A stretch of DNA of 64,000 nucleotides from Mucilaginibacter empetricola. Its GTDB lineage: Bacteria; Bacteroidota; Bacteroidia; Sphingobacteriales; Sphingobacteriaceae. The stretch is from contig NZ_JANUBZ010000002.1 in assembly GCF_024808665.1 (NCBI RefSeq), positions 1 to 64,000 on the forward strand, read 5' to 3'. A program made the translations under genes and the position numbers. Positions 13,978 to 20,201 of this stretch are shown here, piece after piece (position 1 is the first letter of the stretch; each line of letters opens with the position of its first letter). A model generated the notes under the pieces. That model worked only from the letters and a program-made list of their open reading frames with translations. It ran no database searches and was not told the origin of the DNA.

Positions 13978-15288
13978 TTAGTTATTTTTCATTAAATAAT
14001 CTTTAAACCCTTCAAAACCTTTACCCAAAGCGGTCGCTTTTTTGTCTTTTTTAAACAGATCTGCTACCTGTTCAGGTACATTCACTTTGGCGGCAATGCT
14101 TTCCGGGAAAACATCAGGGAACTTGCAGGGGTGCGCGGTTGATAAAAATACGCCGGCTGTGTCTGCTTTATAATTATCCTGCTGCCAGTCGCGCAAGGCT
14201 TGCCAGGCAATGGCAGTATGAGGACAAGCCACATAATTGTAATTATCATTAATAAATTTGATAGCTTCCAGCGTTTGCTCGTCGTTGTAGCTGTAGCCGG
14301 TAATCAGGTCTTTTAAGGCTTCCGCATCGGCTTTAAACAAATCGGCAATACGTACCCAGTTACTTGGATCACCAACATCCATGGCATTACTCAGGGTAGC
14401 TACGGAAGGTTTAGGCTGATAAACGCCGGTTTTTAAAAATTCGGGAACGGTATCATTTAAATTGGTTGCTGCAATAAAATGTTCAACAGGTAAGCCCATT
14501 TTCCAGGCTAATAAACCGGCTCCTATATTGCCGAAATTGCCGCTGGGTACACAGAAAACTACTTTGCCTATTCCTTGTTTTAACAGTTGGGCGTAAGCAT
14601 TAAAGTAATAAAATGTTTGAGGTATTAAACGGGCAATGTTGATGGAGTTTGCTGAGGTGAGTCTGAATTTTTCGTTCAGTTCTGCATCGGTAAATGCTTG
14701 CTTAACCAGAGCCTGGCAATCGTCAAAAGTGCCGTCAATTTCAACCGCGCGAATGTTTTGGCCATTGGTAGTTAGTTGTAACTCCTGTATATCGCTCACT
14801 TTTCCTTTAGGGTATAAAATGGTTACACGAGTGTTGGGCACACCTAAAAAGCCGAGTGCAACCGCACCGCCGGTATCACCGGATGTTGCCACCAAAACGT
14901 CCAGTTGTTTCTCACCCTTTTCAAGGAAATAACTCATCACCCGGCTCATAAAGCGGGCGCCGAAATCTTTAAACGCCAGCGATGGGCCGTGCCAAAGTTC
15001 CAGCACAAAAACGTTTTCTTCCAGCTTTACAACAGGTGCTAAAAAATTGATGGTGTCGCTGATGATGGCTTTCAGGTCATTTTCTGGAATATCCTCACCA
15101 ATAAGTGCCTGCGCAACGTGGAAAGCTATCTCGGGTAAAGTATATTCATCCAAATGGTTTAAAAATTTATCGTCGAGCTTTGGAATAGCAACAGGCATGT
15201 ATAAACCTTTATCCTGCGGCATGCTGTTAAATACAGCCTCTTTGAAAGATACCCTTGTTGATGGGTTTTTAGTACTATATAATTTCAT
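13978..15288 (-). CDS. thrC: Threonine synthase
   Basis: 436 residues. PLP enzyme converting O-phosphohomoserine to threonine, the last step of the pathway. The PLP Lys is Lys107 in SLAFKDFGARF, the phosphate loop follows at ATSGDTGGA, and the N-terminal YSTKNPSTRVSF is typical of the E. coli-like (type II) group. Third gene of thrA-thrB-thrC; the 198-bp gap to thrB is filled by a dispersed repeat. A GIY-YIG cassette follows its stop codon. Confidence 0.95.
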   Translation of the reverse strand: MKLYSTKNPSTRVSFKEAVFNSMPQDKGLYMPVAIPKLDDKFLNHLDEYTLPEIAFHVAQALIGEDIPENDLKAIISDTINFLAPVVKLEENVFVLELWHGPSLAFKDFGARFMSRVMSYFLEKGEKQLDVLVATSGDTGGAVALGFLGVPNTRVTILYPKGKVSDIQELQLTTNGQNIRAVEIDGTFDDCQALVKQAFTDAELNEKFRLTSANSINIARLIPQTFYYFNAYAQLLKQGIGKVVFCVPSGNFGNIGAGLLAWKMGLPVEHFIAATNLNDTVPEFLKTGVYQPKPSVATLSNAMDVGDPSNWVRIADLFKADAEALKDLITGYSYNDEQTLEAIKFINDNYNYVACPHTAIAWQALRDWQQDNYKADTAGVFLSTAHPCKFPDVFPESIAAKVNVPEQVADLFKKDKKATALGKGFEGFKDYLMKNN

Positions 15289-15486: not shown

Positions 15487-16482
15487 TCATCCCAATACCC
15501 TAGGTCCCTTATCATTAATAGTTGATACATATGCATTTGACCCTATACTTATGCTGGTTAAATGTTGCTGCAGTTTTTGGATGATGTGCTTGGCCGTTTC
15601 CTCATCCCTGGTAAAGGCAAAAACTGAGGGTCCCGAGCCGGAGATACCGAAACTTACGGCACCCAGTTCCATAGCCATTTCACGCATCTGGTAAAAATCA
15701 GGGATCAGCATGGAACGCACCGGTTCCACCAAAATATCTTTCATGCTGCGGCCAATCAGGTCAATATCGTTCATAAACAAACCGCTTACCAGTCCGGCTA
15801 TATTACCCCATTGGGTAACGGCATCCTTCATCTGTATGTTTTTGCGGATGATCTGCCTGGCCTCGCGGGTAGGTACATCAACATCCGGGAAAACAATGGC
15901 GCAATATAAGTCTTTCGGATGCGGCAGACGGATTACATCCAGTGGCTCATAACTGCGTATCAGCACAAAGCCGCCCATTAATGCCGGTGCCACGTTATCT
16001 GCATGGCCATGACCGCAGGCCATTTCTTCGCCTTTCATAGCAAATGGTAACAGGGTAGCCGGGTCGGTTTCATCGCCCAATAAAGTTTTTATAGCAAACA
16101 AACCCGCTACCGTACTGGCCGAGCTTGAACCCAAACCACTACCAATCGGCATTTTTTTATGCAGTTCGATATCCAAACCGATATGGGTACGGTTAATGCT
16201 TTTTAAATAATGCTGCACACTTACGCTCACCGTATTTTTAGCAGCATCAAGCGGTAGTCTGCCATTATCGCCCGTAATTTTGCTGATGGTAATGCCCGGT
16301 TTATTGGCAAGCCGCATAATTACTTCATCACCGGGTTCGTTTACTGCGAACCCAAGTACATCAAAACCGCAAACCACGTTGGCAACGGTTGCTGGGGCAA
16401 AAACGTGAATACCCCCCCCGCCCCCTGAAGGGGGAGCTAAAACGGAGGCTGTTAAATCTTGTATTTTATTTTCCATATACAT
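15487..16482 (-). CDS. thrB: Homoserine kinase
   Basis: 331 residues, GHMP kinase. Phosphorylates homoserine with ATP. The ATP loop is PIGSGLGSSSAS at about 112-123, and the C-terminal GHMP motif is SFGISGSGPSVFAF. The conserved start of the family corresponds to IHVFAPATVANV, here residue 25; the preceding ~24 residues end with LAPPSGGGGG and are encoded by a GC-rich repeat and a G8 tract. No other start codon lies between the repeat and residue 25, so the repeat must be translated if the gene is functional. ATG at 16482 or at 16476 could be used. Second gene of the thr operon. Confidence 0.92.
   Translation of the reverse strand: MYMENKIQDLTASVLAPPSGGGGGIHVFAPATVANVVCGFDVLGFAVNEPGDEVIMRLANKPGITISKITGDNGRLPLDAAKNTVSVSVQHYLKSINRTHIGLDIELHKKMPIGSGLGSSSASTVAGLFAIKTLLGDETDPATLLPFAMKGEEMACGHGHADNVAPALMGGFVLIRSYEPLDVIRLPHPKDLYCAIVFPDVDVPTREARQIIRKNIQMKDAVTQWGNIAGLVSGLFMNDIDLIGRSMKDILVEPVRSMLIPDFYQMREMAMELGAVSFGISGSGPSVFAFTRDEETAKHIIQKLQQHLTSISIGSNAYVSTINDKGPRVLG
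16412..16438. repeat. G8 tract plus palindromic repeat inside the thrB coding region
   Basis: C8 on the plus strand (16412-16419) is followed by CCCCCTGAAGGGGGAGCT (16421-16438), a repeat that elsewhere (29139-29155) is intergenic. Confidence 0.8.
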
Positions 16483-16528: not shown

Positions 16529-18976
16529 TTATGCGCCCACATTTATTAAATCAGCAAATACACCTGCGGCAGTAACTTCTGCACCTGCACCCGGCCCTTT
16601 TACCACCAGCGGACGCTCGCGGTATCTATCAGTAGTGAACGATATAATATTGTCACTGCCCGATAAGGTGAAAAACGGGTGACTTTCATCAACCATTTGC
16701 AGGGTGATGGCCGCTTTGCCGTTTTCCAGCTTGCCAATGTAGCGCAATACCTTATTTTCGGCAGCTGCTTTAGCTTTCAGGTTGCTGAAATGTGCATCTT
16801 CTATTTTTAAAGCGGTATAAAAATCCTCAACAGTTTGGGCCTCTAAACAAGCCTTGGGCAACATGCTTTCAATAAACACATCTTCTGCCTCCATAGCGTA
16901 ACCTGCATCGCGGGCAAGGATCAGTATCTTACGCATGAAATCTTTCCCGCTCAAATCATCGCGCGGATCGGGTTCGGTATAGCCTTTTTCCTGTGCTTCT
17001 TTAACCACGTCGTGGAAATTGGCATCGCCCTTAAAATTGTTAAAAATAAAGGATATAGTGCCCGATAAAATGGCTTCAATTTTAGCAATCCTGTCGCCGC
17101 TATTCATCAGGTCTTTTAACGTGCGGATAATTGGCAAGCCTGCTCCCACATTGGTTTCGTAAAAGAAATCAACCCCATGGCGGTGTGCCGTATCATGAAA
17201 GGTTTTATATTGGTGATACGAAGCAGAGTTACCGATCTTATTACAGGTAATTACGGATATATTCGATTTAAAAACCTGTTCATAAACTTCAACCGGCTTT
17301 GGGCTGGCGGTATTATCAATAAATACACAGTTAGGCAGGTTCATGCTTTTCATTTTAGCTACAAATGCATTTAAGTCGGCGGGCTCGTTGGATGCTTCCA
17401 GCTCGTCCTTCCAGCTATCTAACGAAATACCATCAGCATTAAAAGTCATTTTGCGGGTATTGCTGATGCCTGCAATTTTTACCTGTATGCCGTTATGCTC
17501 CTGCAGGTATGCGGTATGCGCATTTAGCTGTTTAAATAAGGTTTGACCAATATTACCAGTGCCCAGGCAAAAGGCATGCAGTGTTTTGGTAAGCTGCACA
17601 AAAAAACCATCGTGCACGGCATTTAAAGCTTTAGCCAGATCATTGCCCGAAATAATTACCGATATATTATATTCTGATGAGCCCTGAGCAATTGCCCGCA
17701 CATTTACACCATTACGACCCAGCGCATGGAACAGCTTGCCGGATACGCCCGGTGTTTGTTTCATATTTTCGCCCACAATAGCAATAATGGCCAGATTTTG
17801 CTCAATTACCAACGGTTCCAGCTTGTTGGCCAGCAGTTCCAACTCAAACTCCTGTTCAATCAATTGTTTTGCTTTTGCAGCATCATCGGGCTGAACAGCA
17901 AAGGTGATACTGTGTTCTGACGACGATTGGGTGATCAATATAATATTGATCTGCTCACGTGCCAGTAAGGAAAACAACCTTCCGCTAAAGCCCGATTTCC
18001 CCACCATGCCGCTACCTTCTAAATTAAGGATGCTGATGTTATTGATGGATGAAATGCCTTTTATAGGCAAGTTGGATGGCTGGCAATTATGACGTATTAC
18101 GGTCCCTTCAAAATCAGGCTCAAAGGTGTTTTTTATAACGATAGGGATCTTCTTTAAAAATGCCGGGATCATGGTTGGCGGATAAATCACCTTGGCACCA
18201 AAATAAGATAGCTCCATCGCTTCGGTATAAGTAAGCTCGGGTAGCGAGAAGGCCTTTTTTACCATCCGCGGATCGGCAGTCATCATGCCATTCACATCCG
18301 TCCATATTTGAATTTCCTCAGCATTTAGCGCTGCGCCCAATATCGCCGCGGTATAGTCGCTGCCACCGCGACCAAGGGTAGTAATTTGTCCCGCTTCGTT
18401 TGATGCAATAAAGCCGGTTACAAACAGCACCTTATCTTTATGCTCATTATAAAAACCACGCACAAGCAGATCAGTAAGCTCCATGTTTACTCTGGCCTGC
18501 CCAAAAGCACTATCAGTTTTAATAATTTCTGATGCCTCCACACTTAAAGCACCCGGAAAATGTTGCGCGCCTATTTTGCCAATCATCAGCGTTGAACAGC
18601 GTTCGCCAAAGCTCAATACCAGGTCGCGGGTTTTTGGTGTGAGTTCGCGCAGGGTGAGCACACCTTGCAGCAAATCTTCCAGCTGATTAAAGTAGATTTT
18701 TAGACGGGTAAACGCCGGGTTTTGATTTTGAACTGTTAACAGGCTTTTTACTACATCAAAATGACGTTTTTCCAGTTCGGCCAAAGCAATCATAAAATCC
18801 TGACCGTTTGCAGCGCCCTCAGCCATTGAAATCAACAGGTTAGTTACGCCGCTCATGGCAGATAAAACAACTATCGGTTTTTCGCCGTTTTTAACTTCTT
18901 CTTTCAGAATGTTAAGTAAGGTTTGGATGCTTTGAACTGATCCTACGGATGTACCGCCAAATTTTAAAATCTTCAT
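16529..18976 (-). CDS. thrA: Bifunctional aspartate kinase / homoserine dehydrogenase I
   Basis: 815 residues, the usual ThrA length. The N-terminal aspartokinase starts with KFGGTSVGS (4-12) and has TLGRGGSDYTA; paired ACT domains occupy roughly 310-460; the homoserine dehydrogenase starts near residue 466 with the NAD(P) loop GTGNIGQTL and ends with the catalytic-domain segment LSGTISFIFNNF. It catalyses steps 1 and 3 from aspartate to homoserine. First gene of thrA-thrB-thrC. An attenuator lies 20-150 bp upstream; the ACT domains suggest additional feedback inhibition by threonine. Confidence 0.96.
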   Translation of the reverse strand: MKILKFGGTSVGSVQSIQTLLNILKEEVKNGEKPIVVLSAMSGVTNLLISMAEGAANGQDFMIALAELEKRHFDVVKSLLTVQNQNPAFTRLKIYFNQLEDLLQGVLTLRELTPKTRDLVLSFGERCSTLMIGKIGAQHFPGALSVEASEIIKTDSAFGQARVNMELTDLLVRGFYNEHKDKVLFVTGFIASNEAGQITTLGRGGSDYTAAILGAALNAEEIQIWTDVNGMMTADPRMVKKAFSLPELTYTEAMELSYFGAKVIYPPTMIPAFLKKIPIVIKNTFEPDFEGTVIRHNCQPSNLPIKGISSINNISILNLEGSGMVGKSGFSGRLFSLLAREQINIILITQSSSEHSITFAVQPDDAAKAKQLIEQEFELELLANKLEPLVIEQNLAIIAIVGENMKQTPGVSGKLFHALGRNGVNVRAIAQGSSEYNISVIISGNDLAKALNAVHDGFFVQLTKTLHAFCLGTGNIGQTLFKQLNAHTAYLQEHNGIQVKIAGISNTRKMTFNADGISLDSWKDELEASNEPADLNAFVAKMKSMNLPNCVFIDNTASPKPVEVYEQVFKSNISVITCNKIGNSASYHQYKTFHDTAHRHGVDFFYETNVGAGLPIIRTLKDLMNSGDRIAKIEAILSGTISFIFNNFKGDANFHDVVKEAQEKGYTEPDPRDDLSGKDFMRKILILARDAGYAMEAEDVFIESMLPKACLEAQTVEDFYTALKIEDAHFSNLKAKAAAENKVLRYIGKLENGKAAITLQMVDESHPFFTLSGSDNIISFTTDRYRERPLVVKGPGAGAEVTAAGVFADLINVGA

Positions 18977-18995
18977 TATTATTTAAATAAAACAA

Positions 18996-19028
18996 AAACG
19001 CCTTCCTCTTTTGCGGAGGAAGGCGTTT
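18996..19028 (-). terminator. Attenuator terminator of the thr operon
   Basis: A perfect 13-bp stem (arms 19016-19028 and 18996-19008, loop 7 nt), followed on the minus strand by TTTTTGTTTT. It lies between the leader-peptide stop codon and the thrA ATG, i.e. in the position of a classical attenuator. Confidence 0.88.
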
Positions 19029-19072
19029 GTTGGTTTTGTTATGTTTTACACCATACGACTATCTTCCTCCGC
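19013..19072 (-). promoter_or_regulatory. Antiterminator pairing of the thr attenuator
   Basis: GCGGAGGAAG in leader-peptide codons 18-21 (plus-strand 19063-19072) is the exact complement of CTTCCTCCGC in the 5' arm and loop of the terminator (plus-strand 19013-19022). The 10-bp pairing excludes the terminator stem, giving the two alternative structures needed for attenuation. Confidence 0.78.
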
Positions 19073-19124
19073 GTTTTATCCCGGTGGTGGTAATAGTTGT
19101 TGTTGAGGTGTTGTTAATTGTCAT
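19059..19124 (-). CDS. thrL: Threonine operon leader peptide
   Basis: 21 residues, ATG to TAG, of which eight are Thr (including TTT and TTT runs at 8-10 and 12-14) and three Ile. The position (83 bp before thrA), the terminator after it, and a 10-nt antiterminator segment inside its last codons match the logic of the enterobacterial thr leader: a ribosome stalled on uncharged tRNA-Thr would leave codons 18-21 free to form the antiterminator. Upstream, a TTG and a TACTTTAC spaced 21 bp apart weakly resemble -33 and -7 elements. Confidence 0.85.
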   Translation of the reverse strand: MTINNTSTTTITTTGIKRGGR

Positions 19125-19259
19125 ATATTATGTCTGTAAAGTAAGTAGATATTTTTTTAATAAACAAGGAATATTTTGATTTTATGAAAAAATAAAATAT
19201 GGGCGACTTACATGCCGCTAAATAAAATAATGGCAAATTAATAAGCTATGTAATTTGAT

Positions 19260-19267: not shown

Positions 19268-19280
19268 ATGCTTGTTTAAT

Positions 19281-20201
19281 ATGCAGGGACTAATCATCAA
19301 ATCAACAGGTAGCTGGTACCAGGTTCAATCTACGGATGGGCAGAAAACCGATTGCCGAATAAAAGGGAAGTTCCGTATTAAAGGAATTACTACTACCAAC
19401 CCTTTGGCAGTGGGCGATGTAGTTGATTTTGAGATGGAACCCGATCAGGAAACAGGCGTAATTACCGACCTGCATCCACGCAGAAACTATATTATCCGCA
19501 AATCCATTAATCTGTCCAAACAGGGGCAAATCATAGCAGCTAATCTTGATCAGGCTATGCTGGTGGTTACTTTGGCTTCGCCGCGTACGTCATTAGGGTT
19601 TATTGATCGTTTTTTAGTGACAGCAGAAGCTTATGATATTCAGGCAAAGTTGATTTTTAATAAGCTCGATTTATTTAGTGAAGATGGTCTGGAAATTTTA
19701 GCCGACTATAAGGCTATTTACGAAAATATAGGTTATCCCTGTTATGAAGTCTCGGCGCTTGATGGTACCAATATCGAACAACTGCAGGAATTGATAAAAG
19801 ATAAAGTGACCCTGTTTTCCGGCCACTCGGGCGTAGGCAAGTCAAGCCTGATTAATGTTTTACTACCCGATCTGGATTTGCGTACACACCAGGTGTCTGA
19901 CTGGAGCGATAAAGGCATGCACACCACCACCTTTGCCGAAATGTTTGAACTGCCGCAAGGTGGATTCATTATTGATACCCCTGGCATCCGCGAATTGGGC
20001 GTCATCGACATAGAAAAACAAGAACTTAGTCATTTCTTCCCCGAAATGCGTGAGCGTATGCACGATTGCCGTTTCCATAACTGCCGCCACATTAACGAGC
20101 CCGGCTGCGCCGTATTAGTTGCACTGGAAGATGGCGAAATAGAACTATCCCGCTATGAAAGCTACCTGAGTATTTATAATGGGAATGATACGAGGGCTTG
20201 A
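19281..20201 (+). CDS. rsgA: Ribosome small-subunit GTPase RsgA
   Basis: 306 residues from the ATG at 19281; an upstream in-frame TTG (19272) is less likely because the -7 box leaves almost no leader before it. Circularly permuted GTPase: OB-fold (about 1-65), then G4 FNKLDLF, G5 SAL, G1 GHSGVGKSSL, G3 DTPGIREL, and a C-terminal zinc-binding segment HDCRFHNCRHINEPGC. It assists late 30S maturation and factor release. Single gene, head-to-head with the thr operon. Confidence 0.93.
   Translation: MQGLIIKSTGSWYQVQSTDGQKTDCRIKGKFRIKGITTTNPLAVGDVVDFEMEPDQETGVITDLHPRRNYIIRKSINLSKQGQIIAANLDQAMLVVTLASPRTSLGFIDRFLVTAEAYDIQAKLIFNKLDLFSEDGLEILADYKAIYENIGYPCYEVSALDGTNIEQLQELIKDKVTLFSGHSGVGKSSLINVLLPDLDLRTHQVSDWSDKGMHTTTFAEMFELPQGGFIIDTPGIRELGVIDIEKQELSHFFPEMRERMHDCRFHNCRHINEPGCAVLVALEDGEIELSRYESYLSIYNGNDTRA

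What the first reader, a model, noticed from the sequence alone, without database searches (positions are those of the whole stretch)
18976..19124. Complete threonine attenuator with leader peptide in a Bacteroidota-type genome
Seen: a 21-codon ORF with eight Thr and three Ile codons, a perfect 13-bp terminator with T run between it and thrA, and a 10-nt segment in the last leader codons exactly complementary to the terminator's 5' arm and loop (19063-19072 with 19013-19022). Known: enterobacterial thrL attenuation works by this logic. Inference: a ribosome stalled on Thr codons frees the antiterminator and opens thrABC. The presence of Ile codons suggests that branched-chain supply is sensed as well. 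It is not in the usual Rfam-type annotation that I know for this phylum.
Basis: partly seen in the sequence, partly recalled or inferred. Interest (0 to 1): 0.75.

Follow-up and report, generated by a model that had tools for sequence, protein, structure and literature searches.

The report
Threonine-operon attenuator in a soil Bacteroidota
Just before the threonine-making genes of a Mucilaginibacter-like bacterium lies a short threonine-rich reading frame and a transcription stop signal that very probably switch the genes off when threonine is plentiful; the switch is built like the textbook one of E. coli, and close relatives carry it too.

Summary
It is no chance feature: 1 of 1486 small ORFs of the window has >=5 Thr at >=30%. 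Of 134 distinct upstream regions of related thrA, 105 have a U-tailed hairpin preceded by an ORF with >=4 Thr at >=20%, against 0 of 134 shuffled and 0 of 134 reverse-complement controls. Terminator arms covary. The leader arm keeps pairing with its own terminator across several arm types (0 of 2000 permutations as good), but a fixed-column count was only weakly positive. Geometry matches E. coli thrL; the Rfam Thr_leader cut-off is missed (34.4 of 55 bits), and the ThrA tree sets this clade apart from E. coli, so convergence is likely. Verdict: new member of a known kind; mechanism inferred, no RNA data. In passing: other Bacteroidota families precede thrA with a different Thr-rich leader lacking a detected U-tailed terminator; mechanism open.

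The parts
19137..19167 (-). promoter-like pair TTG-N21-TACTTTA (resembles the Bacteroidota -33/-7 pattern; that consensus is recalled)
   Evidence: pattern within 90 nt upstream of the leader in 93 of 128 relatives, shuffled mean 6.4
19059..19124 (-). leader ORF MTINNTSTTTITTTGIKRGGR, 8 Thr and 3 Ile codons, stop TAG
   Evidence: relatives
19063..19072 (-). antiterminator 5' arm GCGGAGGAAG in the last leader codons
   Evidence: exact complement of 19013-19022; swap test
19046..19054 (-). ATGGTGTAA, a start-codon-stop string conserved downstream of the arm; role unknown
   Evidence: [ATG]TG[GT]TNTA[AG] in 85 of 129 relatives, shuffled mean 5.0
18996..19028 (-). intrinsic terminator hairpin: 5' arm 19028-19016, loop 19015-19009, 3' arm 19008-18996; U-rich tail to about 18986
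19013..19022 (-). antiterminator 3' arm CTTCCTCCGC (terminator 5' arm plus part of loop)
16529..18976 (-). thrA, bifunctional aspartate kinase/homoserine dehydrogenase I
15487..16482 (-). thrB, homoserine kinase
13978..15288 (-). thrC, threonine synthase

Best explanation
A ribosome-mediated transcription attenuator of the thrABC operon. Transcription starts shortly upstream of the leader (inferred from a conserved promoter-like pattern). A ribosome follows RNA polymerase through the leader. With enough Thr-tRNA (and Ile-tRNA) it reaches the stop at 19061-19059 and covers the arm 19072-19063, so the terminator 19028-18996 forms and transcription ends near 18990. With scarce Thr-tRNA or Ile-tRNA it stalls in the Thr/Ile run; the arm lies beyond its leading edge, pairs with 19022-19013 as soon as that is made, and the terminator cannot form, so thrABC is transcribed. 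Shown: the sequence elements, their conservation, mutually exclusive folds of nearly equal computed stability. Inferred: translation of the leader, stalling, termination, response to amino acids.
For: Elements exact; Thr content beyond chance. RNA up to the terminator loop folds as antiterminator at -23.0 kcal/mol; RNA without the arm folds as terminator at -22.4 to -24.4. 131 of 134 distinct upstream regions have a U-tailed hairpin with a small ORF ending within 70 nt before it (no Thr minimum); 105 of 134 when the ORF must have >=4 Thr at >=20%, against 0 of 134 dinucleotide shuffles and 0 of 134 reverse complements. Terminator: 92.3% of cells paired, 118 cells changed on both sides against 37.3 in shuffles. 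Antiterminator: summed own pairing 2215.5 against a permuted mean of 1854.8, sd 32.6, 0 of 2000 as high; leader ends pair best with terminator arms of their own type. The distance from the last Thr codon to the arm is 12 nt in 44 and 11-13 nt in 76 of 129 although the stop codon moves relative to the arm: about what a ribosome stalled on the last Thr codon would just leave free (footprint size recalled). E. coli thrL, read from its record, has the same plan: 21 codons, 10-nt arm GGTGCGGGCT in the last codons.
Against: No RNA or protein data. The fixed-column antiterminator count was 66.9% paired against 63.8% in shuffles, with 7 double-changed pairs against 6.9 (323 of 500 shuffles as high) and 37 double-changed cells against 30.3 (52 of 500); MAFFT shifts the register there. 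Even for the terminator the number of pairs with a double change (9 against 6.8) was reached by 35 of 500 shuffles. In the leader-end shuffle control only 70 of 115 reach <=5 of 100 shuffles; Pedobacter arms are short (mostly 5-6 bp) and single regions such as L061 and L114 pair poorly. Related sequences inflate every permutation test here. 29 of 134 regions fail the strict rule, and nine picked leaders have only 2 or 3 Thr. L038 and L149 have a weakened U-run and L008 has an insertion between the unit and thrA.
Confidence: 0.9

Rival explanations
1. The hairpin is an ordinary terminator (of an upstream transcript) and the Thr-rich ORF is incidental.
For: The hairpin is strong and could act in both directions (one search lists it on both strands).
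Against: The gene upstream, rsgA, is divergent (19272-20201, +), so no same-strand gene ends just before it; the hairpin ends 19 nt before the thrA start; Thr-rich ORF and hairpin co-occur in 105 of 134 relatives and in no control, and the leader arm tracks the hairpin sequence.
Confidence: 0.03
2. The element is a small-molecule or protein-binding RNA switch and the leader only looks Thr-rich.
For: Sequence downstream of the leader (ATGGTGTAA and similar) is conserved without explanation.
Against: No Rfam match at cut-off; the further helix that I tested between the arms is not supported; codon content rather than a fixed RNA sequence is kept: leaders vary while staying rich in Thr and Ile.
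Confidence: 0.03
3. The leader acts mainly through re-initiation at the conserved two-codon minicistron, with the terminator as a secondary effect.
For: A start-codon-stop string follows the arm in 85 of 129 relatives (shuffled mean 5.0); in 17 of 129 it is the leader's own end.
Against: thrA starts about 70 nt further down, behind the terminator, so a ribosome at the minicistron does not reach it; a U-tailed hairpin is found in 132 of 134 regions.
Confidence: 0.04

Closest known systems
E. coli thrL attenuator / Rfam RF00506 Thr_leader
   Same: 21-codon Thr/Ile leader, 10-nt antiterminator arm in the last codons, U-tailed hairpin before thrA; RF00506 is the best Rfam match (E 6.7e-5 in a 351-base search).
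   Different: 34.4 bits against a gathering score of 55; the arm starts 6 nt after the last Thr codon in E. coli, most often 12 nt here; ThrA lies in a Bacteroidota clade far from E. coli ThrA, so common descent of the leader is doubtful.
Leader-peptide attenuation reported in Flavobacterium psychrophilum (PMC9723704)
   Different: The main text has no 'threonine' or 'thrA'; its supplement (Table S7, 64 elements) was not readable here and may list one. I did not examine that genome.
uORF attenuator of ilvB in Corynebacterium (PMC10272879)
   Same: Leader enriched in the pathway's amino acids, terminator P2 and antiterminator (passages seen).
   Different: Other amino acids, operon and phylum; no sequence relation was tested.

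Membership tests
Ribosome-mediated (thrL-like) transcription attenuator | Short ORF rich in codons of the operon's end product, upstream of the operon | tested here: met
Ribosome-mediated (thrL-like) transcription attenuator | Intrinsic terminator between leader and first gene | tested here: met
Ribosome-mediated (thrL-like) transcription attenuator | Mutually exclusive antiterminator with its 5' arm where a terminating ribosome sits | tested here: met
   fixed-column count weak
Ribosome-mediated (thrL-like) transcription attenuator | Leader is translated and read-through responds to charged Thr-tRNA | not testable with these tools
   no RNA-seq or ribosome profiling at hand
Rfam RF00506 Thr_leader | Bit score at or above the curated gathering score (55) | tested here: not met
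   34.4 bits; nothing at gathering
Rfam RF00506 Thr_leader | Common descent with the gammaproteobacterial thrL-thrA unit | tested here: inconclusive
   ThrA of this clade groups with other Bacteroidota, E. coli on a very long branch; one E. coli sequence only, quick method; the leader itself is too short for a tree

The most novel reading that the evidence does not exclude
Bacteroidota carry two unrelated output devices behind the same threonine-sensing leader: the window's thrL-like terminator type, which arose within the Sphingobacteriaceae ThrA clade independently of E. coli, and a second type in other families (Thr run running into a short G-C hairpin that holds or abuts the stop codon, a following conserved A/U stretch, no U-tailed terminator found), which would be an undescribed class of leader-peptide regulator, perhaps Rho-dependent.
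Probability: 0.3. Interest if true: 0.65.

Novelty: new member of a known kind. Interest (0 to 1): 0.4.

Why it matters
It extends classical attenuation of the threonine operon to a family of Bacteroidota with comparative evidence, in a phylum whose ribosomes are reported to ignore Shine-Dalgarno sequences (abstract start of PMC9976891 seen in a listing), although the antiterminator arm here reads GGAGGAAG. The near-identity of build with E. coli thrL without closely related ThrA lineages points to convergence on one geometry. The contrast with the leaders of other families, in which no U-tailed terminator was found, makes the evolution of attenuators, and a possibly different mechanism, directly testable.

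Tried and rejected
A middle helix (UGGU:ACCA) between the arm and the terminator looked conserved by eye; own pairing was 10.35 against 9.9 in shuffles and 963 of 1000 permutations were as good, so it is rejected.

Two other matches of the thrA upstream DNA in the own genome are not leaders: one covers the start of a second aspartokinase gene (lysC-like), the other lies inside an ORF that looks like a helicase; both names are given by eye.

Homology with gammaproteobacterial thrL by transfer together with thrA is not supported by the ThrA tree. A ThrA search of viral contigs gave none.

A sequence model of the second leader type gave matches at E<=5 in 6 of 10 genomes; in each of the six the best match is the thrA site; four weaker matches (E 0.33-4.2) looked unconvincing. 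The scan scores only 150 candidates per genome and missed the site of G207 that one search lists, so it says little about other operons. ilvD upstream regions (15 loci) showed no convincing leader by eye and rule. RNAalifold on that alignment gave 3 pairs, none with a double change, so its hairpin rests on the constant CCC/GGG and on hairpins found row by row, not on formal covariation.

Literature: nine searches. Those that could have listed a thr leader of Bacteroidota listed no paper on one; this covers only the held open-access library, and no supplement could be read. Lopatovskaya et al. 2010 (PMID 20198868), the likeliest place for a prediction of this leader, is not held; its content is only recalled as a multi-phylum survey.

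The first relatives script read minus-strand loci in the wrong orientation; it was replaced. Its output was not used.

Full report
What is there. On the minus strand, between the divergent rsgA (19272-20201, +) and thrA (start 18976), lies an ORF MTINNTSTTTITTTGIKRGGR (19124-19059) and a 13-bp hairpin with a U-rich tail (19028-18996). Segment 19063-19072 in the last leader codons is an exact 10-nt complement of 19013-19022, the terminator's 5' arm and part of its loop. thrA, thrB and thrC follow, each over an NCBIfam cut-off.

Is it more than chance. Of 1486 ORFs of 10-50 codons in the window, one has at least 5 Thr at 30% or more. The region folds better than all 200 shuffles. RNA ending at the terminator loop folds into the antiterminator at -23.0 kcal/mol; with the arm removed the terminator forms at -22.4 to -24.4; with both present the terminator fold is the best one (-24.5). 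The two states exclude each other and are close in computed energy, as a co-transcriptional switch needs.

Relatives. ThrA is 94% identical to that of Mucilaginibacter frigoritolerans. A family search found ThrA in 104 of 121 genomes at E<=1e-100. I took 160 upstream regions: 30 loci and 74 fetched stretches for the 104, and 56 of the 67 named loci (11 archaeal ones left out). 149 are distinct in their last 250 nt. Set aside before counting: L078 (truncated), 7 regions of divergent ThrA (47-50% identity) and 7 of Saprospiraceae/Lewinella-like records. Of the remaining 134, 132 have a U-tailed hairpin and 131 also an ORF of 10-50 codons ending within 70 nt before it. That rule has no Thr minimum, so I added a control: requiring >=4 Thr at >=20%, 105 of 134 pass, against 0 of 134 dinucleotide shuffles and 0 of 134 reverse complements; none of the 14 regions set aside for their ThrA passes. 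The three misses: L008 (its unit stands more than 200 nt upstream of thrA), L038 and L149 (weakened U-run). Median 6 Thr per leader, nine leaders with 2 or 3; 128 of 131 have Ile, 103 of 131 at least three.

Covariation. On a plain MAFFT alignment of 80 diverse regions picked from 125 the terminator has 92.3% paired cells and 118 cells changed on both sides (shuffled mean 37.3), and loses this when slid; the number of pairs with a double change (9 against 6.8) was reached by 35 of 500 shuffles. The antiterminator in fixed columns is 66.9% paired against 63.8% shuffled, and its count of double-changed pairs is not above shuffles: weak, since the arm sits in different registers. A register-free test asks whether each leader end pairs with its own terminator arm better than with others: sum 2215.5, permuted mean 1854.8, sd 32.6, 0 of 2000 as high, over 115 distinct regions; with their own arm the four groups score 15.8-20.5 on average, with arms of other types 12.2-15.8. 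Against dinucleotide shuffles of the leader end, 70 of 115 stand out at <=5 of 100. Some regions (L061, L114) pair poorly. Relatedness inflates such tests; the repeated change of arm type with kept pairing is the stronger point.

A ruler. From the last Thr codon to the arm is 12 nt in 44 and 11-13 nt in 76 of 129 regions, while the stop codon's end lies anywhere from 27 nt after to 4 nt before the arm start. A ribosome stalled on the last Thr codon would just clear the arm; one at the window's stop would cover it (footprint recalled).

Promoter. TTG-N17-22-TAn(n)TTT[GA], resembling the Bacteroidota promoter (recalled), lies within 90 nt upstream of the leader in 93 of 128 (shuffled mean 6.4); in the window at 19167-19137.

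Comparison. E. coli thrL read from NC_000913 has 21 codons, [21 protein letters not shown], and a 10-nt arm GGTGCGGGCT in the last codons complementary to the terminator arm: the same plan. Rfam's Thr_leader matches at 34.4 bits, below 55. In a quick tree of 60 ThrA proteins the 22 sampled rows of this type form one side of a branch (SH-aLRT 95) among the Bacteroidota rows, with L179 next to them, and E. coli is on a very long branch outside. So it works like thrL, but is not an Rfam member by score and is probably convergent.

Outside this clade. A phylum search found ThrA in 86 of 109 genomes. I read 46 further thrA upstream regions from other, unnamed families (26 loci and 20 fetched stretches, about half of the places listed; in 5 of the 46 the match does not begin at a start codon, so the true start may lie off). 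One (L192, family f14) passes the strict leader-plus-terminator rule; L179 has a Thr-poor leader with a hairpin of similar sequence. Sixteen of 46, and 4 of the 7 divergent Sphingobacteriaceae regions, have a Thr run leading into a short CCC/GGG hairpin that holds or abuts the stop codon. By the rules no U-tailed hairpin lies between leader and thrA in these; in L184 the stop hairpin itself meets the lax U rule, and L173 and L175 list a hairpin inside the leader. In one family (f4) I examined 29 further regions, of 48 other places listed: 28 show this hairpin as the best of a loose scan, L280 by eye, and 0 of 29 have a U-tailed hairpin in the 320 nt upstream. An alignment of 36 shows invariant CCC and GG and a following A/U stretch. 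No Rfam family reached its cut-off in six loci of this type. The window's own genome has a His-rich leader MKAHTLHFSHLHHHHHVVIR before hisG, without a U-tailed hairpin by eye, and 7 of the 8 other same-genus loci printed have a His-rich ORF there (L229 was not positioned on the gene start), whereas two relatives of other families have His leaders followed by U-tailed hairpins. The mechanism of the second type is unknown.

Literature. Leader-peptide attenuation before amino-acid operons is in print for F. psychrophilum (PMC9723704, section 19 read); a B. thetaiotaomicron study mentions leader-peptide-like sORFs (PMC7366714, passages). Three large RNA-motif surveys have no 'threonine' or 'thrA' in their main text (PMC6429828, PMC8632094, PMC11109978; term counts and passages). 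I found no paper on a Bacteroidota thr leader; supplements and the 2010 survey by Lopatovskaya and others could not be read.

Verdict. Real, conserved and very probably a classical Thr/Ile attenuator; ordinary in mechanism, with the likely convergence and the contrast to other families as its interest.

Noticed in passing
L182, L184, L185, L187-L189, L191, L195, L197-L201, L203, L208, L223, L172-L175, L253-L281 (upstream of thrA): In other Bacteroidota families thrA is preceded by a different Thr-bearing leader whose end runs into a short CCC/GGG hairpin holding or abutting the stop codon, followed by a conserved A/U stretch, with no U-tailed terminator found between leader and gene; not in Rfam at cut-off for six loci tested.
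   Followed up: partly
L228 (own genome, upstream of hisG) and L230-L236: His-rich leader (MKAHTLHFSHLHHHHHVVIR in the own genome) with a short inverted repeat at its end in several loci, a conserved following stretch, and no U-tailed hairpin by eye.
   Followed up: partly
window 19046-19054: ATGGTGTAA, a start-codon-stop string 4-9 nt (17 nt in two) beyond the antiterminator arm, is kept as [ATG]TG[GT]TNTA[AG] in 85 of 129 relatives (shuffled mean 5.0) and is the leader's own end in 17; no explanation.
   Followed up: partly
window 19063-19072: The antiterminator arm contains GGAGGAAG, a strong Shine-Dalgarno-like string, in a phylum whose ribosomes are reported not to recognise such sequences (PMC9976891, abstract start in a listing).
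   Followed up: no
L012, L013 upstream of thrA, downstream of the terminator: Between terminator and thrA these two Mucilaginibacter relatives carry an extra inverted repeat (GGCCTCACCCTGCCCTCTCC... and the reverse), perhaps a small repeat element.
   Followed up: no
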